Assembly: GCA_913054475.1 (NCBI GenBank)
Contig: CAJXJF010000007.1
Location: 1-48,524 of the forward strand
DNA from: an uncultured Nitratifractor sp.
GTDB lineage: Bacteria; Campylobacterota; Campylobacteria; Campylobacterales; Sulfurovaceae
DNA length: 48,524 nt
Reading direction: 5' to 3'
In this document: in pieces, positions 25,279-48,524 of the stretch
Numbering within the stretch: the first letter of the stretch is position 1
Layout: the number at the start of each line of letters is the position of its first letter
Translations under genes and position numbers: made by a program
The notes under the pieces: generated by a model
Database searches by the model: none
Seen by the model: only the letters and a program-made list of their open reading frames with translations
What the model was told of the DNA's origin: nothing

Positions 25279-28092
25279 CTATCTTGCGACGACTTGATAA
25301 TATAGAGACTCCAGGCCTTCTTTCTGTTCATATCTATTGTATAGCTCAAAGATCTTATCTTTGAGAACACGCGCTCTATCCGCTTGACATCGGGACCAGT
25401 AGTCTATTCTTTGAACGATCAGCTTTGTATTCACTCTTTGTACAAGTTCCAAAATAGCCTTCTCCAACTCCAACTCACCGATATCTTCCTTCAGGTAGAG
25501 ATCCAATTTTTCGATGGCTTTGAATGTTTCATGCTCTTTTAGTTCGACTACTTTTTCGCTCAGCTCGTTTAGTTCGATCCAAGAGAAATCGAGCTTGTCG
25601 AGCAGAATTTCGACATTGGTTTTTGCGTCAAGATATTTCAAATCTTTTTTCATATTTGAGAGTTCCGCCAATACTTCTCGGGTTAGTGTCTCTTCATGGG
25701 TGCGCCAAAGATCCAGTCGATTTTTTTGATGCAGCTCTTCGACAAAAGCGTAGAAGAGCTTATTGCGTACACTCTCTCTCAACAGTATGAGCCCGAATCC
25801 ATAAAAAGTGAATACTTTGTACACACTGTCGAAATCTTCCCGATTCAGATAGTCGAAAATGAAGGCGCTTGCCCTCTCGACGAACTCTCTATAGGCTTTT
25901 GTATAGCGAAACGAATCTATGATTTTTAGATAGATTTCATGCAGTATCTCTCTATGCTTTTTTATTTCCGGATTCGTCATAAGAACACTCGATGAGAGTA
26001 TGGGAAGTATCGACTCGATTTTGTGCATATCCGTATCGTTGCCATGAAGTACGATATCGACCGCGAGATAGACCAAGCTCTCGAAAAAAGAGGCTTCGAT
26101 CGTATCGACACTTACGATATGGAATATCCGATACATCGCATAGAGCTCGAGTGTCGCTTGCATATTGTAATTTCGGACGATATCGATCAATATCCTGAAA
26201 TGGTCATAATTTCTTTTGTCGAATGTCTCGAGATGTTTCAGCGCCCTTAGATAGTCTTCGAATTGACCAGAGTCGATCACATTATGGATAAACGAGCTGT
26301 TTTGTAGGAAAAACTCCAGCAGTTTATCATCGAAATATCTATATTCGGTGTTCGATTTCTTTTTCGACTCTTTGATGACATCGAGAAGATAGGGATAGAG
26401 CTTCAATATGATCGCACTTTGCGACGAGAGTATCTCGTCGAGCAATTCGCTACTTTTGATTTTGTTGATAAACTCCACCAGCCGATCCTTGTTTTTCTCC
26501 AGTACCTGACAAAACGATACGAACAGCTCTTTGTGCTGTATGAAAATTTCGGCGAACTCGTTTTTGTAATCTTTGTAATCGAACTTTTTCTTTTCGAAAA
26601 TCGATAGTATGAATCGAGCCAGATTTTTACGCACGACTCCACTGTATGTATTGGATGAGATATGAAGCAGCTGCTTGAGCAATTTGTCGTCGAACTTCAG
26701 ATAATCCACGAAACTGCTGTAGTCGTCATCCACAAAGAGTATCGAGATCATCTCTTTCGAATCCGACGCTATGTCGAGAATCGTTCCGATACACCGGCTA
26801 TAGAGATCAGCTTCCGAAGAGACTGAACGGATAGTGTCTTGAAAGAGATTTTTGACTTCATAGTGGTTCGAAGATGCAATCAGCAGAGCCACAACAGTGT
26901 CAAACTGCGACGAGCAGGTACACTCCTTGTTTATTGTGAAATTCCGAAAAAAATTTCGAATACAGTCCGATAGTTCCAGCAATGGAGAGATTGCGTCCGC
27001 ATTGTCGAAAATATCGAAAGACTCGAAACTGCGATAGTAGTTCAGCAACAGGCGATTGATACGATACGCATCGGCATCGCTATAGCCGAAATCTTCGTAG
27101 AGATTTAGATAAATGTCTCGTTTGGCCTCCCGAATGTAACGGTTGATAAAAAAGGGGTTTTTGGAGATGTGGTGATAGAGTGCCCGATACTCCACATGCA
27201 GAATCGACATGAGCGCCGTGGAGCGTTTCATCACCTCTTCCGATACGCCTCCTCTCTTGTTGCCGCATTTGCAACGATAGACATTAAGAATGTAGTTGAT
27301 GTCTCTGGGTGTAAGAGGATAGATACTGAGGATATATCTCCGAAGTATCTGATCGAAACCCCCGATACTATCCATGTATCGGTCGATATCCGCCCGGGTT
27401 TTTTGCTTGACATAGTAGGAGGTGTGAAAGGTTTTTTTGACAAGATCCTCGAAATATTTTTTCTGCTCATCGACTGCGTGGGGATCGATGGCGATAAGGA
27501 TGGGTTTGTCGAACCACTCCTGAAGCTTGTGCACCGACGAGAGTAGTTCGATCTTTTTCTCGATGGAGCAGCGATCGAGATTTTCGAAGCAGATCGCTTT
27601 GACGCTCTTTTGGTATCGGATGATTTTTTTGAATCCGTCGATCAAGCTCCTGGTGGCTTCTTTGTGGAGCTTGTACTGGTAGGCGGTGTAGCCGCCATGA
27701 AGCCCCGATGAAGGGACGGGCAGGGTGAAATTGAGACCGTAGAGAGAGCTCTTGAGCCCGCTTTTACTTCCTATACTCATGAACGATTGTTTGAGATTAC
27801 CGAAGGAGGTACTGATATCCTTCTCCATATTGTAGATTCGATGCAGAGCGTTTTCGATATCGTACACCTCATATTTCCAGACATCGACCTCCAGTATGCC
27901 CACTCTTTTTTCAAGGGCTTTGACGATAGCGCTCTTGCCTTCGCCGTATGCACCGAAGATACCGATGACGACATAGCTTCTGCCCGCCTTTTCGATCTCT
28001 TTTTCTATTTTCTCGACCAGCTCCCATGAGCCGAAGAGATCGCTCTCCTGCGTCAGTTCGAACTCTCTGTCTATATAGATATCCATCTTCAT
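25279..28092 (-). CDS. KAP-like P-loop NTPase, last gene of the phospho-signalling cassette
   Basis: 937 residues, soluble; I see no membrane helix, although many KAP proteins have them. Walker A is G-A-Y-G-E-G-K-S at 47-54. Walker B is A-I-C-F-E-N-L-D-R-C at 166-175, close to the KAP hallmark D-D-L-D-R-C but with E-N in place of the first D-D. 'ILIAIDPHAVDE' near 207 is a KAP sensor-like strand. 'YPLTPRDINYIL' near 281 fits the helical lid. The remaining 600 residues are long alpha-helical repeats without a recognised domain, perhaps a target or sensor scaffold. The ATG overlaps the preceding receiver gene's stop (ATGA), so translation is coupled. GATC-rich and ATC/CGN codon use, unlike the core genes. 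Role inferred: ATP-driven output or regulator of the cassette. Confidence 0.85.
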   Translation of the reverse strand: MKMDIYIDREFELTQESDLFGSWELVEKIEKEIEKAGRSYVVIGIFGAYGEGKSAIVKALEKRVGILEVDVWKYEVYDIENALHRIYNMEKDISTSFGNLKQSFMSIGSKSGLKSSLYGLNFTLPVPSSGLHGGYTAYQYKLHKEATRSLIDGFKKIIRYQKSVKAICFENLDRCSIEKKIELLSSVHKLQEWFDKPILIAIDPHAVDEQKKYFEDLVKKTFHTSYYVKQKTRADIDRYMDSIGGFDQILRRYILSIYPLTPRDINYILNVYRCKCGNKRGGVSEEVMKRSTALMSILHVEYRALYHHISKNPFFINRYIREAKRDIYLNLYEDFGYSDADAYRINRLLLNYYRSFESFDIFDNADAISPLLELSDCIRNFFRNFTINKECTCSSQFDTVVALLIASSNHYEVKNLFQDTIRSVSSEADLYSRCIGTILDIASDSKEMISILFVDDDYSSFVDYLKFDDKLLKQLLHISSNTYSGVVRKNLARFILSIFEKKKFDYKDYKNEFAEIFIQHKELFVSFCQVLEKNKDRLVEFINKIKSSELLDEILSSQSAIILKLYPYLLDVIKESKKKSNTEYRYFDDKLLEFFLQNSSFIHNVIDSGQFEDYLRALKHLETFDKRNYDHFRILIDIVRNYNMQATLELYAMYRIFHIVSVDTIEASFFESLVYLAVDIVLHGNDTDMHKIESILPILSSSVLMTNPEIKKHREILHEIYLKIIDSFRYTKAYREFVERASAFIFDYLNREDFDSVYKVFTFYGFGLILLRESVRNKLFYAFVEELHQKNRLDLWRTHEETLTREVLAELSNMKKDLKYLDAKTNVEILLDKLDFSWIELNELSEKVVELKEHETFKAIEKLDLYLKEDIGELELEKAILELVQRVNTKLIVQRIDYWSRCQADRARVLKDKIFELYNRYEQKEGLESLYYQVVAR

Positions 28093-29180
28093 TTCAGCTT
28101 GAGAGTGACGATGCTCTGCGAGCGATCTCTCTCTATATATTTATCGAGCGAGACTATATTTTTGGTAGAGCGCTCGAAGAGTTGATAGAGCTTTCTGTTT
28201 TCGATATACGGCTCACTCTCGAGCTCGAAAGCGTAGGGTTGTGGAGAACCTGTAAGTATCTGTGCTCTAACATGCAGTTTTCGATTCTCGAATTCATGGT
28301 GTTCGACATAGATGAGCGGATTGGCATAGAAGTAGTTGTTGTGCAGTACCAGATTGGCGAAATGCATCTGCAACTCCGGCGTCAACTCTACATCTTCGTT
28401 TTTGTGGGTAAAATAGTCGCGCATCTTCCGTAGCGCTTCGAGCGACTCCATCAACGATTCGCAGAGGAGCTTGCTAATTTCCGATTTTACGCAATCCGCC
28501 ACGGAGATATCCCAAATTTTGTTTCGCACCTCTTCGAGTCTATCGATCATTCTGGCATTTTGCCATATGGCTTCTCCTCTTAGTCCCGTAGCGGAGAGAA
28601 CCGAAGCGTAGATGAATTTCAGATCGAGTTCGAAAAACCGTACCATCGCCTCTATGCGCTTTTTGTCATCATAATCATATGATAGATAGCGACTGAGCAT
28701 ATTCCCCAGCCTCAGGGGAAGTATCTTGGTTGCATCCTGGTAGATATCCTTTTGCAGATACTCGAGACTCCGCTCGAGAAAATGAGCGCTCCACCGCTTC
28801 AATACATCTTTTTCTCCCTTGTTGAAGTAGTTCTCTTGTCCTATTTTGCTATCTGTGAATTTTATATCGTAAGGATAGTTCGAGAGCATTACTTGAAACA
28901 ACATATTGTTTTTTATTTTCAGTATCTCTACAGCTTTTGAGCCAAACTCCCCATTTGCCTCTCGACGCTCAGATGAGCTATAGATTTTTTGATCTATCGA
29001 GACACCGATATAGTAATTTTGGGCGATTTTTCGCTCCACAGCCTCCAGATCGCCCACATAGCCACACTCCAATCCCACTCCATACTTTTCGGAAAGCTCT
29101 TCGCACTTTTTGGAGATATACTCTTTCATCCTTTTCAAAAAACGCTCATCATCTTCGATAATCAAGAGTTTAAAGCTCAT
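28089..29180 (-). CDS. Receiver domain fused to a HEPN-like domain
   Basis: 363 residues. Residues 1-130 are a receiver: acidic pair E9-D10-D11, candidate phospho-acceptor D63 (V-S-I-D-Q-K), S100 and K121. An insertion of about 15 residues near 66-80 is unusual. The rest is helical; 'LRLGNMLSRYL' followed by 'RIEAMVRFFELDLKFIYASVL' leads into a helix ending A-L-R-K-M-R-D-Y-F-T-H-K at 249-260. R254-x4-H259 is the R-x(4-6)-H signature of HEPN domains, many of which are metal-independent RNases. The C-terminal 90 residues are beta-rich and unrecognised. ATG 29180 has AAGGAGGG upstream and overlaps the previous gene by 11 nt; the longer in-frame start has no Shine-Dalgarno. No DNA-binding output domain is visible. 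Nuclease activity is inferred. Confidence 0.8.
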   Translation of the reverse strand: MSFKLLIIEDDERFLKRMKEYISKKCEELSEKYGVGLECGYVGDLEAVERKIAQNYYIGVSIDQKIYSSSERREANGEFGSKAVEILKIKNNMLFQVMLSNYPYDIKFTDSKIGQENYFNKGEKDVLKRWSAHFLERSLEYLQKDIYQDATKILPLRLGNMLSRYLSYDYDDKKRIEAMVRFFELDLKFIYASVLSATGLRGEAIWQNARMIDRLEEVRNKIWDISVADCVKSEISKLLCESLMESLEALRKMRDYFTHKNEDVELTPELQMHFANLVLHNNYFYANPLIYVEHHEFENRKLHVRAQILTGSPQPYAFELESEPYIENRKLYQLFERSTKNIVSLDKYIERDRSQSIVTLKLK

Positions 29181-31914
29181 ACTCTCCCTCCTTTTCGGAT
29201 AGCGGCAGTGTAATGACGACCTGGGCACCGCCGCTCTCTCTATTTTCAAGTTTCATCTCACCTTTTAGTTCGAATTCGATCATCTGATGGATATATTTCA
29301 GTCCGAAGCCACCACCGTCACTTTTGGTCGTTTTCAACTTGGCAAAATCTGTCTCGACAAAACCTTTGCCATCATCTTCGATCGTGATCGTGCAGACTCT
29401 CTTCTTACGATCGATGGAGGCTTTCACTCCGATTTCGGTGACCTCTTCTGCCTCGAGGGCATTTAGCAGAGGATGAAAGAGGATCATATAGAGATAGCTC
29501 GTATGCTCCGCCTTGATGGTGACAGGCTCGATGTGGTAATGAAGCTTCACCTTTGCGCTATCGATCTTGTATCGCAGATCGTCGATCAGGGCTCCGTAGA
29601 GTTCCTCGAGAGTCTTGTAGCCATATGTCGCGCTGGAGATATAGCGTTTGGGATAGTTGGATACCGTAATGAGCAGATCGACCGTCTCATCGACTATCTT
29701 TTCGATCTCATCCGCCGAATAACTATCCCGAAAGTCGCGGATGGCTTCCAGATTGGCTTTGGCTGTGTTGAGCGGTGTCCCCATGGCGTGGGAGAGGTTG
29801 CGAAAGAGGGCATCGAGGGTATTTTTGCTCGTGAGATAATCGACCTTCTCTTTGAGCCTCTCGTTGTCGATATGCTCTCGTATATCTCTCCCAAGCCACG
29901 CCACGAACCCTTCGAGTATCTTTAGCTGGTTCTCACTTAGGGGATTTTCGCGGTCGAATTCGATATTGACAGCGCCCAGCACTTCACCTGCGAAAGATAG
30001 TTTCGAGATAAACGCGGATTTCGTATTGGAGCCCTCTATGATTATAAAATGAGACTCTCTTGCTATATCGGGAATATAGCGTGTCTTCTCCTCTACCTCT
30101 TCTGCCTCTATGAAGTTTTTGATCGACCCATCTTTATTGAGCTTCTCTTCGATAGATCTCATATCCTCCTTCCCAACAGGCTCATTGCTGGAGTTGTAGG
30201 TGAAATACTCCATCTTCAGACGGTTTTTGTCCAGCAAAACGATGCCGAAATTGCCAAATCCCACGAACTCTTCCAAAAACTTTGTAGCCTGCTTCAATCT
30301 CTCTTCGTGCGACTCTTTGGAGATTGCCTGAATCATACTGCGCATAAAGTTTTCATGTCTCAGATTCGATACCCGTTTTTCGGCGACCGTAACCAAGTAT
30401 TCGATCTCTTCACGCAATTGGATATTCTCGGGCGTTTTTCTCATCCCATAAGCGTAGGGCTGGTTGGATTCGAGGTTGAGCACCCCTATCGCCCTACCCT
30501 CCGAAACGATGGGGAGGCAGAGTTCGCTCAGCATCTTGGAGTTGTTGGTAAAGAAGTCTATATTTTCGTCACCTCGATTTTTCGTCAACGCTTCGACAAA
30601 ACTTCTTTTCAAGCTCTTCTCCTCGGCCCTGGGATCCTCGAAGGCATCCCTATTCAGTACACAAAAGTGATTGTTGCGAAAGACCCAGCAGGAGATATTG
30701 CTATTGTAGATAGGTATAGGTTCTGTATTTTTACAACCAATACCCACCGTAGCTTTATATACGAGAAGATTTGTCAGAGGATCGAGTATCTTGATGGTCG
30801 TTTTGGTATTTTCGGACTCCTGATTGTAATGTCTATGTATCAAAGCACCCAACTCTTCCCATATCTCATCTTCATTCTCGGCTTCGAGTATCTTTTTTAC
30901 GAAGTCGATTAGATCCTTGTAGCAGTGATTGCGATTCATCAACTGCCAGTCTCGACGGATGCTGTTGGCGGAGAGCTGGAAGAGCCCTTTTAGCTCATCG
31001 TCGAAACTGTGCGAGCGATTGTGGCAATAGATCGAGATATTTCCAAGCGGAGTATTTTTATCCCCCACGCGAATCATCAATCCGCTCTCGATATTGAGAC
31101 TTTTTGCGGCATCTCGAATCGAACTAGCGACCGAATCATCGTCAACAAATGTCTTCATAGCTACATCGCTTATGACTCCGCTATCGCTGCAGAGCAGATC
31201 GTTGAGTAGCTTCACATCGCCGACCCGAAGCTCGGAGAGGGCCTCTCGTATGGACTCATCTTCGATATTGGACGCTATCAGCTTCATGATCCCGGCTTGG
31301 TACTCACGGATGATCACCGTGTAGTAGGGATAGTATTTGGCAAACACCTCTATATAGTGCTTGGCCAGCTGCCCGATATCTCCTACATTGTTATCCCTTT
31401 TGTGGCTCACTTCGGTGATGATTTTGTGGGTGGTAAGCTGACGCTGCTCGGTATGTAGGCGCATAGCCGTCACCAGCAGATCCTGCATGAAGTAGTCTCT
31501 GGCTTTGGAGACCGAGAGGGCTTCGTTGCTCTTGATAATATAGCCCTTGGCACCCAATCTGACCGATTCAATCCCCTCTTTTTGCAAATTCTCGCCATTG
31601 GCTGTCATAATGACAATCGGAGGCAGCGACGGATATTTTTGGGCGAGCTCTAGTATCTCGATAGCCCGTATACCACTCCCAAGATCGTAATCGCATACGA
31701 TAATATCGGCGATGTAGCTTTGGTGCTGCTCATTTATATAGTCATAAAAGGATTGACCATAGTCACTGTTTCGCACCTCTCCCGCATCGCTACCGAAACA
31801 GAGCGGCTCTATATGCTCACTATACTCCTCGTTTAGCTCGATATCTTCTTGCAGACTTCTCAAAAAGGCTCTGTCGTCATCGACGAAGAGTATCCGAATC
31901 TTTCTCTTGCTCAT
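29170..31914 (-). CDS. Hybrid signalling protein: receiver, three GAF-like domains, histidine kinase
   Basis: 914 residues, cytoplasmic. The receiver at 1-135 has a complete active site: D12-D13-D14, phospho-acceptor D75 (I-V-C-D-Y-D-L-G), T104 and K128. Three GAF-like modules follow at roughly 185-330, 345-510 and 525-690 ('LPIVSEGRAIGVLNLES' is a GAF landmark). The kinase core has H709 in N-L-S-H-A-M-G-T-P-L-N, N box H-P-L-L-N-A-L-E-A near 818, G1 E-D-D-G-K-G-F near 847 and G2 G-G-G-F-G-L. Having a receiver before its own kinase suits a relay position between the separate kinase and the receiver-HEPN protein. The ATG overlaps the upstream kinase's stop (ATGA) with GGAGG upstream. Confidence 0.9.
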   Translation of the reverse strand: MSKRKIRILFVDDDRAFLRSLQEDIELNEEYSEHIEPLCFGSDAGEVRNSDYGQSFYDYINEQHQSYIADIIVCDYDLGSGIRAIEILELAQKYPSLPPIVIMTANGENLQKEGIESVRLGAKGYIIKSNEALSVSKARDYFMQDLLVTAMRLHTEQRQLTTHKIITEVSHKRDNNVGDIGQLAKHYIEVFAKYYPYYTVIIREYQAGIMKLIASNIEDESIREALSELRVGDVKLLNDLLCSDSGVISDVAMKTFVDDDSVASSIRDAAKSLNIESGLMIRVGDKNTPLGNISIYCHNRSHSFDDELKGLFQLSANSIRRDWQLMNRNHCYKDLIDFVKKILEAENEDEIWEELGALIHRHYNQESENTKTTIKILDPLTNLLVYKATVGIGCKNTEPIPIYNSNISCWVFRNNHFCVLNRDAFEDPRAEEKSLKRSFVEALTKNRGDENIDFFTNNSKMLSELCLPIVSEGRAIGVLNLESNQPYAYGMRKTPENIQLREEIEYLVTVAEKRVSNLRHENFMRSMIQAISKESHEERLKQATKFLEEFVGFGNFGIVLLDKNRLKMEYFTYNSSNEPVGKEDMRSIEEKLNKDGSIKNFIEAEEVEEKTRYIPDIARESHFIIIEGSNTKSAFISKLSFAGEVLGAVNIEFDRENPLSENQLKILEGFVAWLGRDIREHIDNERLKEKVDYLTSKNTLDALFRNLSHAMGTPLNTAKANLEAIRDFRDSYSADEIEKIVDETVDLLITVSNYPKRYISSATYGYKTLEELYGALIDDLRYKIDSAKVKLHYHIEPVTIKAEHTSYLYMILFHPLLNALEAEEVTEIGVKASIDRKKRVCTITIEDDGKGFVETDFAKLKTTKSDGGGFGLKYIHQMIEFELKGEMKLENRESGGAQVVITLPLSEKEGEYEL

Positions 31915-33239
31915 TTCGCCTCCTCGGTCAGTGTGGTCAACTTCATGGCATCTCTCGGTAGAGTCAGTGTGAAGGTGGTCTTGTATCTCTTGTAATTTTC
32001 AAGCTCGATCCTGCCTCCGAGAAATCCGGCGATATAGCTACAGATAGGCAAGCCAAGACCGTTACCCTCCTCTTTGGTGGTATATCCCTCTTCGAAGAGT
32101 CTATCGACTACCGCCGGATCGATGCCGCGGGCATTGTCGCTGACTCGGATAAGCAGATGCTTTTCGTCGCTATTATCGACCTTGATATGAATGATCTTCG
32201 GCAAAGTTTCGATATCGCGATATGCTTCGATACTGTTGGTAACGAGATTCATCACCAGATGCATCAGCAAGGCACGGTCGGTATGGATGGGGCTGGGTGG
32301 AGAGTCGATTGTGATTTTGATCCCCAACCGTGTCGCCACGACATTGGCAATCAAGACCGCATCATGCAGGACTTTGGCAATATCCACCTCTTCGGTAGTG
32401 GCCTGCTTGGTGAGTTTGGAGATCGCCCTTGTGATGTCGGTGAGCGCTTCGAGTGTCGGCTCGACAACCTCTTCGATACTGCTTAGAAGTTTTGCCGTTT
32501 CCAAATGCGCCTCCTCGAGTGTCTCACTCTCGGCAATTCGCCCGATGCGTTTTTTGAGATTTTGGACCGATGTATAAAGTGTGACACCGCGATGATAAAT
32601 CTCGTGGGTTATCATCGAGGGGACAAGGGCTTTGAGCATCTCCATGCGCTGCTCGTAGATGAGCTTGGCTTTGCTCTTGATATTGAACGATGCCAACTCG
32701 TAGTAGTGCCCGAAGAGATAGAGTACCCGCTCGTCCTGTGTTATGGTCGTGGGAATCTTCTGAATCGAATTGTAACCGCTATACCATAGAACCATTATGC
32801 GATCCGGATGTTTTGGTGTAGCGCGAGGCAGATAGACCATCGTAGCCCAACCACCCCTACGAAACTCGCTTGGTGGAATGAAAAAGGATAAAAAATCGAT
32901 CATTCCCGAAGAGCTGTGGTAGCTATAGGCATCGCGACTCTTTTCGATATCTCTCAAACAGCCATTTTCGACCAGTTCGGTCACCCTTTGCGCATTTGCG
33001 CTACTATAATAGTCTCTCTTGAGATTGCGATAGATATTTTTGTCCCATATCTTGAAGAGCTCCAAATGCTCCCCTCTATTGTATCGTTCGAGAATAATTA
33101 TCACCCCTGCCGAAGAGATCTTCATAAGCTCATCTCCGAAATAGAGCAAAAGCTCTTCACGCAAACGATACGAGGCTATCTCTCTGAGGAGATTTACAAG
33201 TATCCGATCGTAGCTCCGGTGCCCCACATAACTCTTCAT
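31911..33239 (-). CDS. Soluble histidine kinase, first gene of the cassette
   Basis: 442 residues, no membrane helix, so it would sense a cytoplasmic cue. Residues 1-190 resemble a GAF-type sensor ('GVIIILERYNRG' near 45). The dimerisation/phosphotransfer helix has H212 in M-I-T-H-E-I-Y-H-R. The ATPase domain has N box M-N-L-V-T-N-S-I-E-A-Y at 330-340, G1 S-D-N-A-R-G-I-D at 367-374 and G2 G-N-G-L-G-L near 392. GGGGG five bases before ATG 33239 supports the start. Partner inference: phosphorylation of D75 of the next protein. Confidence 0.9.
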   Translation of the reverse strand: MKSYVGHRSYDRILVNLLREIASYRLREELLLYFGDELMKISSAGVIIILERYNRGEHLELFKIWDKNIYRNLKRDYYSSANAQRVTELVENGCLRDIEKSRDAYSYHSSSGMIDFLSFFIPPSEFRRGGWATMVYLPRATPKHPDRIMVLWYSGYNSIQKIPTTITQDERVLYLFGHYYELASFNIKSKAKLIYEQRMEMLKALVPSMITHEIYHRGVTLYTSVQNLKKRIGRIAESETLEEAHLETAKLLSSIEEVVEPTLEALTDITRAISKLTKQATTEEVDIAKVLHDAVLIANVVATRLGIKITIDSPPSPIHTDRALLMHLVMNLVTNSIEAYRDIETLPKIIHIKVDNSDEKHLLIRVSDNARGIDPAVVDRLFEEGYTTKEEGNGLGLPICSYIAGFLGGRIELENYKRYKTTFTLTLPRDAMKLTTLTEEAK

Positions 33240-34254: not shown

Positions 34255-35055
34255 CTATCTGCGAGCATCTGCCACTCTGTCGCTTTTCAAAGAAGATAGG
34301 AGACTCTCCTCTATACTATCCCACTCCCGCTGCATCTGCGAATAGGCTGCCTCTATAGCCTCGTTGACCCTGCCGAAATCGAAAAGCGGCATATCCGATA
34401 CGGCATCTATCATACGATAGGAGTCACACAACTGCCTCGATGGAAGCGTCGTACCCCTTAGAAGTATCATGACGGTATGTATCGTCAGAGATATCACCCC
34501 GGCGCTCCCCCTTTTGGGGAGCGGATTTACATCTATCCCCAGAATCGGCAGCTTGTATTTAAGCAGAGGACGCGCCGGCAGATTGTCACGGAATCCGCCG
34601 TCGGCGAAAAGCCTCCCCTCTACGGATACAGGGGAGAAGATGGGGGTAAGAGCGCTCGAAGCTATGACATTTCTTATCGGGTCTCCTTCGCTTAGATAGT
34701 GCACCTGGGCACTTTGCATATCCGTAACGGCACAGAAACACGGTATTTCGAGCTCATCGTAACTCTCTATCTGCAGGGCTTCGCGGAGCCTTCGCTCGAG
34801 CCTTTCGAGAGAGAATATTCCGGGAGAGCCTCTGAATCTGAAGATATCCCTCTTTTCAAGAGAGTGCAACAGCTCTCTCATCTCCTCCGTCTTCCAGGAG
34901 GCGGCCATGAGCAGAGCGACTATGGCACCGGCGCTCGAACCGGAAATGGCCGATACCCTCACCCCCTTCTCTTCGAGAAACTTCAACACTCCGATATGTG
35001 CCGCCGCCCTTGCGGCACCTCCGCTGAGAACCAATCCTATCTCCATCTTCTTCAT
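34255..35055 (-). CDS. Patatin-like phospholipase
   Basis: 266 residues. Serine lipid acyl hydrolase fold: oxyanion loop L-S-G-G-A-A-R near residue 10, nucleophile elbow G-S-S-A-G near 40, and the dyad aspartate in F-A-D-G-G-F-R-D-N-L-P near 151. This matches the RssA-type bacterial branch. No signal peptide, so cytoplasmic. Its ATG overlaps the PBP2 stop (ATGA), so it is the tail of the cell-wall/LPS run and may act in membrane lipid turnover. Confidence 0.9.
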   Translation of the reverse strand: MKKMEIGLVLSGGAARAAAHIGVLKFLEEKGVRVSAISGSSAGAIVALLMAASWKTEEMRELLHSLEKRDIFRFRGSPGIFSLERLERRLREALQIESYDELEIPCFCAVTDMQSAQVHYLSEGDPIRNVIASSALTPIFSPVSVEGRLFADGGFRDNLPARPLLKYKLPILGIDVNPLPKRGSAGVISLTIHTVMILLRGTTLPSRQLCDSYRMIDAVSDMPLFDFGRVNEAIEAAYSQMQREWDSIEESLLSSLKSDRVADARR

Positions 35056-44048: not shown

Positions 44049-44384
44049 GCTACCGAAGCAGACAGAGCGCTTCGAGAAAAAATCCACCCAAAAAGTCTAA
44101 ATATTAATTTCAACTTCTAAACTACACTTCAGAAAGATTCTCCAACTTTTTAAAATTGGGCAAAAGTATCATGTGATACTCTGGATTACCACCGCTCCCC
44201 ACCGCAAACAGTACTACTCAAAAAGCATCTTGACCCTTGAACACCGAGATTTCAAAAGATTATGACCTGTCCTGCAAAATTTCTCTGCGCATAAACATTT
44301 TAAATGGCCAGTGACTAAGCTTACTAGCGCCAACAGAGCTTAGTAGAATTGCCGTCCAAATACAGCACCTTGTCATGCGCTTTT
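44049..44384. other. 336-bp non-coding junction between G+C-rich and A+T-rich segments
   Basis: No ORF with support. Base composition drops from core-like to A+T-rich along this stretch. It contains a perfect 8-bp inverted repeat, ACTAAGCT (44314-44321) and AGCTTAGT (44337-44344), separated by 15 nt, and a CGAAGC/GCTTCG hairpin at about 44054-44074. Neither has a T run. No transposase, integrase or tRNA fragment is visible. Confidence 0.6.
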
Positions 44385-45158
44385 CTAATACCTCTTAATA
44401 TCTGCATACAAATTGATTAATGATTCCCTTTTCAGCCGAAATTTTGTTCCATGATTGTGTCCAGTTCTTGCATCAAAGTCGATATAAACATTACCTGATT
44501 CTATAGCGCCAATAAATTTATCTAAATCGAATTTTTTTAGCATGTATATATCCTGATAATGAAAATGGAGTGTCCCATTTATTCTTTTTGATTCAGCGTT
44601 TACAAAAAAGCAATTATGAAGCTTTGTCCCTGCCTTATGATACAAATCATCAAATCCCCAATATGGTTTAGGGTCAAGTATTTTATGAGAAACTGATCGT
44701 GTCCACTCTGGATGATCTTTGCCTACAATTTTACTTGGATCAAAATCAATTAGCACTTTTCTTTCTTTTCTATCAACTTTTGCTATAAATCCTCTATTGC
44801 TAAAACCTGATGCATTTATTGTTTGACGAAAACTTTTTTCACCTTTTGGATATCTTCGACCTGCTTCTTGATGCTCCCACCCAAATTCTGGTAATAGAAT
44901 AGCTGGAACAAATCTATAAGCACGAGGAGAAGGTTCCATATGAAACAAGGTAATCAATGAGGTAGTATCTTTTTTCTGTGCTTTAAGTTCCCATTCTGCG
45001 GCATTGGGTATAGGTAAATTATTTTCTTCAATACCTAATAAATCTTCTAATGTATTACCAACACCACCGTCATTATTCCTTCTTCTGGTTGGAATCCAAC
45101 CTTGATCACGAATCTCTATAAGAGCCTCTATTAAACTCTGTTTAGTATATGTCTTCAT
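44385..45158 (-). CDS. Type II restriction endonuclease, MvaI/BcnI family
   Basis: 257 residues. The segment G-G-V-G-N-T-L-E-D-L-L-G at 31-42, then E-E-N-N and 'PNAAEWELKA' at 51-60, is the core of the MvaI/BcnI family: a PD-(D/E)xK variant whose catalytic E-x-K is W-E-L-K-A. Known members cut CCWGG or CCSGG as monomers, so a CC(N)GG-type site is expected but not proven. It overlaps the methyltransferase stop by 4 nt. A+T-rich codon use (AAA, TTT, ATT) unlike the genes before 44 kb. Confidence 0.85.
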   Translation of the reverse strand: MKTYTKQSLIEALIEIRDQGWIPTRRRNNDGGVGNTLEDLLGIEENNLPIPNAAEWELKAQKKDTTSLITLFHMEPSPRAYRFVPAILLPEFGWEHQEAGRRYPKGEKSFRQTINASGFSNRGFIAKVDRKERKVLIDFDPSKIVGKDHPEWTRSVSHKILDPKPYWGFDDLYHKAGTKLHNCFFVNAESKRINGTLHFHYQDIYMLKKFDLDKFIGAIESGNVYIDFDARTGHNHGTKFRLKRESLINLYADIKRY

Positions 45159-45904
45159 TGATTCTCCGCAATGTTAAAAAGTGTTTGTTGTTTTGTTTGA
45201 GTTTTATTTCCTCTCCTTGTTATTGAGAGAGGGTTAACAAGGCGTTCTTCTGCCATTTTGCAATATTCAGGTGAAATATCTATACCTATAAATTGCCGAT
45301 CCAATTTTTTTGCTACTACTGCTGTAGTTCCTGAACCCATAAAGGGATCAAGAATAATATTTGCATTTGTTGATGATATAATTCTTTCTATTAAATTCTC
45401 AGGAAACGGTGCAGGGTGTTTGTTTTTACTCTCTTGTCCAAATTCCCATACATCACCATAAGAATTTGCTTTTTTTACTAATTTAAATTTTGGTTTTGCT
45501 ATTAGGTATATAACCTCATAAGTTGGTAAAAAATATCCTGGATTGAAATTTATTCCTCCTTTTCTTCTCCAAATTATAATTTGTCTAACTGGGAACCCTG
45601 AAACAATATCATGACGGTCTTGAAGTAAGCCAGCTTGTACACGCCACTTATGATTATAAAAAATAGCACCATCATCCGGAATAACCCTTAGCATTTCAGA
45701 AAGACACTCTCTTTGCCATTCAACATATTTTTCATGAGGCATATTGTCGTCATAGTGTGAATACCCATCAATAAGTGCAGCATTTGACCACTTACCACCT
45801 CTACCATCTTTCATTCCATTTCCTGTCGAATTTTTCAGGTTGTATGGCGGAGAAGTAACAACTAAATCAACTGCCCCATCAGGAATCTGTTTCATTACAT
45901 CCAC
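45155..45904 (-). CDS. Site-specific DNA methyltransferase (beta-type, probably N4-cytosine)
   Basis: 249 residues from GTG 45904. Catalytic motif IV is T-S-P-P-Y-N-L at 17-23, and SAM motif I is D-P-F-M-G-S-G-T-T near 193, giving the IV-before-I order of the beta group. S-P-P-Y and the MvaI/BcnI partner suggest N4-cytosine methylation. The conserved lead-in K-F-I-C-G-D-S-V-D-V-M lies partly upstream of any ATG, GTG or TTG: the frame stays open into the purT 3' end without a standard start. An ATA codon at 45929-45931 sits five bases after GGAG and could be the real start. Protects host DNA from the neighbouring endonuclease. Confidence 0.87.
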   Translation of the reverse strand: MDVMKQIPDGAVDLVVTSPPYNLKNSTGNGMKDGRGGKWSNAALIDGYSHYDDNMPHEKYVEWQRECLSEMLRVIPDDGAIFYNHKWRVQAGLLQDRHDIVSGFPVRQIIIWRRKGGINFNPGYFLPTYEVIYLIAKPKFKLVKKANSYGDVWEFGQESKNKHPAPFPENLIERIISSTNANIILDPFMGSGTTAVVAKKLDRQFIGIDISPEYCKMAEERLVNPLSITRRGNKTQTKQQTLFNIAENQ

Positions 45905-45927
45905 ACTATCCCCACAGATAAATTTAT

Positions 45928-47088
45928 CTATAAAATCTCCACTTTTTGAATCATTTTTTTCGCTTTTTGTAAAGAGTTCTCACCACTTACAAGTAAAACT
46001 CCCATTCTTCTCCCTTTATGGGATTCCGGTTTTCCAAATACAATAAATCTACTATTTGTAGAAAATAGAGTTTCATCAATTTCAAAAGTTGGTGAATAAC
46101 TATCTTTATCAGCTTTAAAAGCGGCAGAAGTCCCCTCTCCATAAAATTCAAATCCAAGAGGAAGACCAAGCACCGCTCTAATATGAAGGGCAAATTCAGA
46201 TTGTGATTGAGTTATCATTGTAACCATTCCTGTATCGTGTGGGCGAGGACTAACTTCTGAAAAATAAACTTCATCACCCGCTACAAAAAGTTCTACCCCA
46301 AAAATCCCTTTTCCACCAAGGCCATCAGTGATTTTTTTCGCTATCTCTTTCGATTTTTTAAGTGCTATTTCACTCATTTTCATCTCTTGCCATGAAAAAA
46401 CATAATCCCCATTTTTTTGAATATGCCCTATTGGTGGGCAAAAAATAGTTTCTTTCCCATTTCTTGCCGTTAAAAGAGTGATTTCATAATCAAATTTTAT
46501 AAACTCTTCCACTATCAATTCATCAGCACTACCTCTTGCATCTTCTTGTGCAAAATCCCAAGCTTTTTGAATCTCTTTTTCACTTTTTATAATAGTTTGT
46601 CCATGTCCTGAACTACTCATTACCGGTTTTATTACACACGGAACTCCTATTTCTTTAACCACTTTTTTTAATTCATCTAAACTTTTTACAAATTTATATT
46701 TACTTGTTTTAAGTCCCAATTTTTCACTTGCAAAAACTCTAATATGTTTTCTGTGCATTGTTTTATTTACCGCCTCTGCATTAGGGATTACATTAAATCC
46801 CTCTTTTTCCGCTTCAAAAAGTGCTTCAATACTTAAAGCTTCTATTTCCGGCAAAATATAATCCGGTTTTTCCCTTCTAATAATCTCTAAAAGTGCTTCT
46901 TTATTTCTCATATTAACTACATAACTATTTTGAGCGACAAGCATAGCGGGTGCATTTTGATATCTATCAACCGCTACCACTTCACAACCGAGTCGAATCG
47001 CTTCAATTGCTACCTCTCTTCCAAGTTCTCCACTCCCTAAAAGCATCACTTTTTTTCTATTTGATTTTAATGGTGTTGTAAATCTCAT
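45928..47088 (-). CDS. purT: Formate-dependent phosphoribosylglycinamide formyltransferase
   Basis: 386 residues. Uses formate and ATP to formylate GAR in purine synthesis. ATP-grasp: '[21 protein letters not shown]' pattern at 14-34, P-E-I-E-A near 80, 'SSSGHGQTI' near 155, '[13 protein letters not shown]' near 255, and '[14 protein letters not shown]' near 275. AAAGGAT upstream of ATG 47088. Low-G+C codon use. Its stop touches the methyltransferase lead-in. Confidence 0.95.
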
Positions 47089-47103
47089 ATTTATCCTTTA
47101 AAT

Positions 47104-47400
47104 TTATTTTAAAAAATCGTTCATATCTCTACTATTTAAACTATCTACCGGATTTTGAATATCGATTTTTGTTTCATTTTGAAGTTTATTTAACTCATCT
47201 TTATATTTTTTGACCTCCTCTCTCATCTCTTCTATCTCTAACTCCCTTGTAATATCAGCCGTTGCATCTTTCCACATTTTTTTAATTTTTTTTATAAATC
47301 TCGCAAAATCTTTCATAGCTTCTGGAAGTTTATCCGGCCCTAAAACTAATACCGCTAAAACAATAACAACTAAAAATTCACTAAATCCTATATCAAGCAT
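47104..47400 (-). CDS. tatB: Twin-arginine translocase subunit TatB
   Basis: 98 residues. One N-terminal membrane helix with the TatA/B start (MLDIGFSEFLVV, then L-V-L-G-P-D-K-L-P near 19), an amphipathic helix (about 25-45), and a charged coiled-coil tail. The E at position 8 and G-P hinge fit TatB rather than TatA. tatC is not adjacent in the window; purT follows after 15 nt. Confidence 0.88.
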   Translation of the reverse strand: MLDIGFSEFLVVIVLAVLVLGPDKLPEAMKDFARFIKKIKKMWKDATADITRELEIEEMREEVKKYKDELNKLQNETKIDIQNPVDSLNSRDMNDFLK

Positions 47401-47455
47401 ATTTTTACCTTTTAAGTCTTATTGTAAAAATGATTTTATCATCTTAACAATAACA

Positions 47456-47477
47456 CCAAAAAGAGCTTAAAGCTCTC
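47456..47477 (-). terminator. Rho-independent terminator of leuC
   Basis: The minus strand reads AGAGCT-TTA-AGCTCT followed by TTTTT: a 6-bp stem whose loop lies within the leuC stop region, then a U run. Short but well placed, 56 bp before tatB. Confidence 0.6.
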
Positions 47478-48524
47478 TTGGATCAGCTATTTTCCCCATT
47501 ATGGCACTTGCAGCTGCCACTGCTGAATTTGCAAGATAAACTTCACTATCTCTTGCCCCCATTCTACCTCTAAAATTTCTGTTTGTAGTAGATACACATC
47601 TTTCTCCATCACCTAAAATTCCCATATATCCACCTAAACAAGCCCCACAAGTTGGATTTGAAACAACGGCACCCGCTTCAATAAAAATATCTATAAGCCC
47701 CTCTTTTTGTGCTTCTAAGAAAATTCTTTGAGTTGCCGGAGTTACAATCATTCTTACTTTTTTATGAACTTTTCTCCCTTTTAAAATATTTGCAGCAATT
47801 CTAAGGTCTGAAAGTGTTCCATTTGTGCAACTTCCTACAAAAGCTTGGTCAATAGTTATATCATCTTTTACCGCTTCACTCATACTTTTCCCATTACTTG
47901 GTAAAAATGGGTAAGCAATTACCGGTTCAAGATTTGTAACATCAATCTCAATCACTTCTGAATAATTTGCATCTTCATCTGAATAATGTTTTACAATTTC
48001 ACTTCGTAAAGGGTGATTTTTTGCTACATCATTTAAAAACTCTTCTGTAATTTTATCATAAGCAATTATCCCATTTTTAGCACCCGCTTCAATAGCCATA
48101 TTACATAAAGACATTCTATCGTCCATTGGTAATTCATCTATCACTTCCCCTGTAAATTCAAGAGATTTGTATAATGCCCCATCAACTCCGATTCTTCTAA
48201 TAAGTTCAAGGATTAAATCTTTTCCATAAACATTTTTACCCCTTTTCCCTTTGAAAATCACTTTAATAGTTTCTGGAACTTTAAACCAACTTGTTCCTGT
48301 AATCATAGTAAAAGCAATATCAGTTGAACCCATACCTGTTGCAAATGCCCCTAATGCTCCGTGAGTGCAAGTGTGAGAATCTGCTCCAATAATCACATCT
48401 CCCGGAATTATAAGCCCATGTTCCGGTAGTAGTCTATGCTCAATCCCCATCCTTTTTTCATCAAAAAGGTGTTTCATATTATGTTCATAAGCAAACTCTC
48501 TACTAATTTTTGCTTGATTTGCAC
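47467..48524 (-). CDS. leuC: 3-isopropylmalate dehydratase large subunit, 5'-truncated by the window edge
   Basis: About 352 residues visible; the frame continues off the right edge, so the N-terminus (about 65-70 residues) is missing. The Met at 48477 is internal: preceding codons encode A-N-Q-A-K-I-S-R-E-F-A-Y-E-H-N, normal LeuC sequence. 'GADSHTCTHGALGAFATGMGSTD' carries the first Fe-S cysteine, with G-S-C-T-N-G and T-C-G-A-C-L-G giving the others. 'GRMGARDSEVYLANSAVAAASAI' is the family C-terminus. Length fits the short (about 420 aa) HacA/LeuC type. Makes 2- and 3-isopropylmalate interconvert in leucine synthesis with LeuD. Confidence 0.95.
   Translation of the reverse strand, partial: ANQAKISREFAYEHNMKHLFDEKRMGIEHRLLPEHGLIIPGDVIIGADSHTCTHGALGAFATGMGSTDIAFTMITGTSWFKVPETIKVIFKGKRGKNVYGKDLILELIRRIGVDGALYKSLEFTGEVIDELPMDDRMSLCNMAIEAGAKNGIIAYDKITEEFLNDVAKNHPLRSEIVKHYSDEDANYSEVIEIDVTNLEPVIAYPFLPSNGKSMSEAVKDDITIDQAFVGSCTNGTLSDLRIAANILKGRKVHKKVRMIVTPATQRIFLEAQKEGLIDIFIEAGAVVSNPTCGACLGGYMGILGDGERCVSTTNRNFRGRMGARDSEVYLANSAVAAASAIMGKIADPREL

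What the first reader, a model, noticed from the sequence alone, without database searches (positions are those of the whole stretch)
25279..33239. Four-gene phospho-signalling cassette: histidine kinase, receiver-GAF3-kinase, receiver-HEPN, KAP NTPase
Four minus-strand ORFs overlap by 4, 11 and 4 nt, so they form one translationally coupled unit. None of the four has a membrane helix or DNA-binding output domain. Seen in sequence: complete kinase boxes (H212; H709), a complete receiver (D75), a second receiver (D63) fused to a domain with R-x4-H, and a KAP-like NTPase with N-L-D-R-C. From established knowledge: HEPN and KAP domains are frequent in bacterial conflict systems, and two-component phospho-signalling is used in anti-phage defence by Detocs. 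Inference: an internal cue starts a His-Asp relay that switches on a HEPN RNase, with KAP ATPase control or output. I know of no named system with this set of four.
Basis: partly seen in the sequence, partly recalled or inferred. Interest (0 to 1): 0.88.

Follow-up and report, generated by a model that had tools for sequence, protein, structure and literature searches.

The report
Orphan two-component operon with RNase-like output
One bacterium of the Campylobacter phylum carries a four-gene unit in which two sensor kinases probably switch on a protein that looks like an RNA-cutting toxin, together with a KAP-type ATPase; it resembles known two-component anti-phage defence, but no relative was found in the genomes sampled and its function is untested.

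Summary
Four minus-strand genes (33239 down to 25279) overlap by 4, 11 and 4 nt. Profiles support a histidine kinase (HATPase_c 7.5e-20), a receiver-GAF-kinase, and a KAP NTPase (20.6 bits, cut-off 20, when the N-terminal 300 aa are scanned alone). Two assignments go beyond what profiles show. The receiver of the third protein is too divergent for Pfam, but its key residues align with 19 receivers of this genome, at about the 1% level. Its HEPN domain rests on motif and topology (R254-D-x3-H259 at the end of predicted helix 3, E217-x3-K in predicted helix 2); no HEPN profile hits it and both structure models were too poor to use. The cassette is accessory: beyond kinase and KAP cores, no relatives in 150 to 397 genomes per survey, nor in plasmid, phage or viral collections. 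G+C is slightly low and a MvaI/BcnI restriction system lies 11 kb away. I found no published receiver-HEPN system with a KAP partner. Best reading: a Detocs-like two-component system with a HEPN RNase output and a KAP partner (confidence 0.4). With a single known copy, conserved order and enrichment near defence genes cannot be shown.

The parts
31911..33239 (-). Gene 1, cytoplasmic sensor histidine kinase, 442 aa. Unknown N-terminal domain (1-205), phosphoacceptor H212, HATPase_c 321-430
   Evidence: ATG with upstream GGGGG; HATPase_c 7.5e-20; N-terminal 205 aa has no relative in 397 phylum genomes
29170..31914 (-). Gene 2, receiver (D75) - GAF region - histidine kinase (H709), 914 aa
   Evidence: Response_reg 4e-7 in the whole protein; receiver matches the genome's own receiver profile at 96% probability; GAF_2 2.2e-8, HisKA 9.3e-5, HATPase_c 7.8e-11; segment scans show two GAFs, the first of three segments unassigned
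28089..29180 (-). Gene 3, divergent receiver (E9/D10, D63, S100, K121) fused to a helical R-x4-H (R254/H259) HEPN-like domain (about 170-286) and a C-terminal strand-containing tail, 363 aa
   Evidence: Receiver residues align in a global comparison, score 14.8 against shuffles mean 3.8, max 16.4; E217xxxK and RDYFTH; helix layout from two low-confidence models; no Pfam HEPN hit
25279..28092 (-). Gene 4, KAP-family P-loop NTPase, 937 aa, no transmembrane insert, long C-terminal region without known relatives; start lacks a Shine-Dalgarno and overlaps the stop of gene 3 (ATGA)
   Evidence: KAP_NTPase 20.6 bits (cut-off 20) on residues 1-300, 18.5 bits in the genome search; Walker A 47-54, Walker B region with NLDRC 171-175

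Best explanation
A soluble, single-operon two-component (phosphorelay) system whose output is an enzyme and not a transcription factor, most likely an anti-phage or stress-arrest module. Kinase 1 (H212) and/or the GAF domains of kinase 2 detect an intracellular cue. Phosphate passes to the receiver of gene 2 (D75), which tunes its kinase, and then to the receiver of gene 3 (D63). Phosphorylation frees or dimerises the HEPN-like domain, whose R254/H259 pair cuts RNA and stops growth. The KAP NTPase is translated by coupling from gene 3 and acts with it, as an ATP-driven switch or restraint of the RNase or as a second output. Shown: gene layout, kinase, first receiver and KAP signatures, motif residues. 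Inferred: HEPN fold, direction of phosphate flow, RNase activity, role of KAP, defence.
For: Overlapping genes with the KAP start lacking its own ribosome site. Catalytic residues present in both kinases and both receivers. Profile support for kinases, GAF, first receiver and KAP. Second receiver above nearly all shuffles with all key residues aligned. [quoted passage not shown] Patchy distribution, lower G+C (0.43-0.49 against mostly 0.49-0.55 in neighbouring host genes) and a nearby restriction system. Precedents: Detocs two-component defence (PMC11249213) and KAP in phage immunity (PMC8195603).
Against: No HEPN profile match even at E 10. Comparison with HepT and Apea HEPN alignments gives 2-3% probability, the Apea match lies outside the motif, and one unrelated control scores higher for HepT. 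Both structure models are below pLDDT 50 and the fold search returned no HEPN among the matches shown. No second example, so no conservation of motif, order or defence context. PADLOC hits are limited to weak matches. No HPt domain was found, so the relay route is a guess.
Confidence: 0.4

Rival explanations
1. A non-defence signalling operon. The kinases and receivers control a cellular process through protein-protein contacts; the helical region of gene 3 is a binding or dimerisation module without RNase activity, and KAP is the regulated ATPase.
For: No HEPN profile or fold evidence; no credible defence profile hit on the signalling genes; GAF-bearing kinases usually serve metabolic or redox sensing (general knowledge).
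Against: Absent from all 12 other genomes of the genus and from the wider samples, so accessory, not core; motif and helix layout fit HEPN.
Confidence: 0.33
2. The KAP NTPase is the main effector and sensor of a defence module, as in other KAP-based exclusion systems. Gene 3 is a regulatory receiver subunit that holds KAP inactive, and its R-x4-H is not catalytic.
For: KAP is named as an anti-phage player (PMC8195603); genes 3 and 4 are translationally coupled and KAP has no own ribosome site; weak AbiLi match of the KAP protein.
Against: Does not explain the R-D-x3-H and E-x3-K arrangement; no known KAP defence with two kinases was found in the papers searched.
Confidence: 0.2
3. A decaying or recently assembled cassette without a coherent function.
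For: Single occurrence.
Against: Four intact long frames with overlapping starts and catalytic residues in place.
Confidence: 0.07

Closest known systems
Detocs (defensive two-component system)
   Same: Soluble kinase and receiver genes in one operon; receiver fused to a non-DNA-binding output domain (the latter from general knowledge of Detocs)
   Different: Three genes, best described with a PNP-type ATP-cleaving effector (PMC11249213); here four genes, two kinases, receivers on a GAF kinase and on a HEPN-like protein, and a KAP NTPase. Sequence membership not tested
HEPN RNases of toxin-antitoxin and abortive infection systems
   Same: R-D-x3-H at the end of predicted helix 3 and E-x3-K in predicted helix 2
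   Different: No profile match; fused to a receiver, a fusion not mentioned in the HEPN survey PMC3710099
KAP NTPases (PF07693)
   Same: Walker A, DRC-type Walker B, VDVWKYE strand, profile match just above the cut-off
   Different: No transmembrane insert; C-terminal 600 aa without relatives; linked to two-component genes
GAF-containing hybrid histidine kinases
   Same: Receiver, GAF, HisKA, HATPase order
   Different: Only the kinase core has relatives in the phylum sample

Membership tests
HEPN superfamily | Rx4-6H with polar residue after R | tested here: met
   RDYFTH at 254-259; definition in PMC3710099
HEPN superfamily | Ex3[KR] in helix 2 and motif at the end of helix 3 of a four-helix bundle | tested here: inconclusive
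   Positions fit in two models of low confidence
HEPN superfamily | Profile or fold similarity to known HEPN domains | tested here: inconclusive
   No Pfam hit at E 10; weak hhalign match at the motif for HepT, prob 3%; fold search not usable
Receiver domain (gene 3) | Acid pair, phospho-Asp, Ser/Thr, Lys in a (beta-alpha)5 order | tested here: met
   Residue set met, fold not verified: E9/D10, D63, S100, K121 align; score 14.8 against 100 shuffles mean 3.8, max 16.4; first half of the strand-helix order seen in a poor model; Pfam not hit
KAP NTPase | PF07693 gathering score | tested here: met
   20.6 bits on residues 1-300 (cut-off 20); 18.5 bits in the genome search; not listed when the whole protein was scanned
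Detocs | Three-gene set with a PNP or similar ATP-depleting effector | tested here: not met
   Four genes; no such domain in any of the four proteins
Detocs | Sequence homology of kinase and receivers to DtcA/B/C | not tested
   No Detocs family turned up in the PADLOC scan, which gave no hit at all to gene 1; whether that library holds Detocs models is unknown

The most novel reading that the evidence does not exclude
A new type of two-component defence in which a His-Asp phosphorelay directly switches a HEPN RNase under control of a KAP NTPase.
Probability: 0.3. Interest if true: 0.8.

Novelty: new variant of a known kind. Interest (0 to 1): 0.5.

Why it matters
If true, two-component phosphosignalling, best known for gene regulation, would directly fire an RNA-cutting toxin. 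That would extend the Detocs principle to a second effector class and give KAP NTPases a testable regulatory role.

Tried and rejected
1. Homologue searches for gene 3: 249 class and 150 family genomes, pattern scans of genome and viral contigs, plasmids and phages. A plasmid hit at E 0.4 lay outside any receiver or kinase context and was rejected as chance.
2. Gene 4: one hit, G236, an ordinary KAP protein next to a type III restriction system; plasmid and phage searches empty or with E 4-6 partial hits to P-loop proteins.
3. Gene 2: only kinase-core matches in 397 genomes; nothing in plasmids, genome contigs or viral contigs. Gene 1: N-terminus unique, nothing in viral contigs; plasmid hits are to the generic kinase core.
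4. Structure prediction of gene 3 whole and of its helical part, without an alignment: mean pLDDT 36 and 50, pTM 0.24 and 0.38; the fold search gave unrelated helical bundles.
5. HEPN profile comparison with HepT and Apea sequences: not separable from controls.
6. Empty-site comparison: hldE and pbp2 are not neighbours in the related genomes read, so no clean empty site could be shown.
7. Promoter and terminator scan: no excess over shuffles.
8. Rejected: RbsD_FucU match of gene 3 (E 0.012) as chance.
9. Searches centred outside the phylum were not possible with the handles available.

Full report
What is there. The four genes lie as described. In order of transcription: HK 33239-31911, receiver-GAF-HK 31914-29170, receiver-helical protein 29180-28089, KAP protein 28092-25279. 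Overlaps are 4, 11 and 4 nt. The first three starts have purine-rich ribosome sites; the KAP start has none and overlaps the stop of gene 3 as ATGA, which suggests coupled synthesis of genes 3 and 4 (inference). The unit is flanked by hldE on one side and by nosL, patatin and pbp2 on the other.

Domains. Gene 1 ends in HATPase_c (7.5e-20); its first 205 residues match nothing credible. Gene 2 has receiver, GAF, HisKA and HATPase_c matches. Scanned in pieces, GAF is seen in the second and third of the three segments between receiver and kinase (the third only at E 0.023), but not in the first, so 'GAF3' is two GAFs plus a possible third. Gene 4 is a KAP NTPase: 18.5 bits in the genome search, 20.6 bits against a cut-off of 20 when residues 1-300 are scanned alone, with Walker A at 47 and NLDRC at 171. 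None has a membrane helix by hydropathy.

Gene 3. Pfam finds no domain above chance. Compared with an alignment of 19 receivers of the same genome, its first 145 residues score 26 locally, controls and eight shuffles at most 16.5. In a global alignment the acid pair, D63, S100 and K121 all fall on the expected columns; the score, 14.8, lies far above the mean (3.8, sd 2.6) and below the maximum (16.4) of 100 shuffles. I take the receiver as probable. The helical part has R254-D-Y-F-T-H259 and E217-V-R-N-K221. [quoted passage not shown] Both models place E217 in the second long helix and R254/H259 at the end of the third, but mean pLDDT is 36 and 50, so this is layout only. The motif R[NDH]x3H occurs 5 times in 62,549 residues of 169 ORFs, 0.019 per 243 aa, and twice with Ex3[KR] upstream, each count including gene 3. 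In shuffles of gene 3 itself it appears in 6% (residues 121-363) or 3% (165-290). Direct comparison with HepT and Apea HEPN alignments is not decisive: the HepT match falls on the motif (KMRDYFTH against KMRDKLIH) with probability 3%, and one control window of gene 4 scores higher. HEPN is therefore plausible and somewhat more likely than not, but unproven.

Distribution. No relative of gene 3 in 249 class genomes and 150 family genomes, nor of gene 1's sensor in 397. Gene 4 has one match besides itself, an unrelated KAP protein, and gene 2 only kinase-core matches. Plasmid, phage, viral and genome-contig searches gave nothing credible. These searches find close to moderate relatives, are samples, and for genome and viral contigs depend on exact short peptides; absence elsewhere is not shown. 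The genus has 13 genomes held and the cassette was found in this one only. In related genomes read, hldE and pbp2 lie in other surroundings. Gene G+C is 0.43-0.49, neighbours mostly 0.49-0.55. This fits an accessory, probably acquired unit, but does not prove it.

Context. A MvaI/BcnI restriction enzyme and its methylase lie at 44385-45904, G+C 0.34-0.35. One neighbouring system at 11 kb is weak evidence for a defence island.

Literature. The HEPN survey mentions receivers only in another fusion; conflict-system papers mention receivers without histidine kinases and KAP as one of several NTPases; Detocs is a three-gene two-component defence with a PNP effector; DefensePredictor lists HATPase and REC among domains of predicted systems. 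I found no system with these four genes, within an open-access library that lacks most subscription journals.

Judgement. I put the RNase-output reading at 0.4.

Noticed in passing
window 44385-45904 (-): MvaI/BcnI-family restriction enzyme and N4/N6 DNA methylase overlapping by 4 nt, G+C 0.34-0.35 and third-position G+C 0.20, clearly unlike the rest of the contig.
   Followed up: partly
window 44100-48524: The last 4.4 kb drops to G+C 0.32-0.37, including PurT-like and LeuC-like (aconitase family) genes that would usually be of host composition; a foreign block or a chimeric contig end are both possible.
   Followed up: no
window 34255-35055 (-): Patatin-like phospholipase (RssA-like) between nosL and pbp2, two genes upstream of the cassette.
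   Followed up: no
L006 30-8950: KAP NTPase directly beside a type III restriction-modification operon in another Campylobacterota genome.
   Followed up: partly
L028 (genome G058, contig of 2101285 bases): The single-contig congener has the size I recall for Nitratifractor salsuginis, which would place the window in that genus; from memory, not tested.
   Followed up: no
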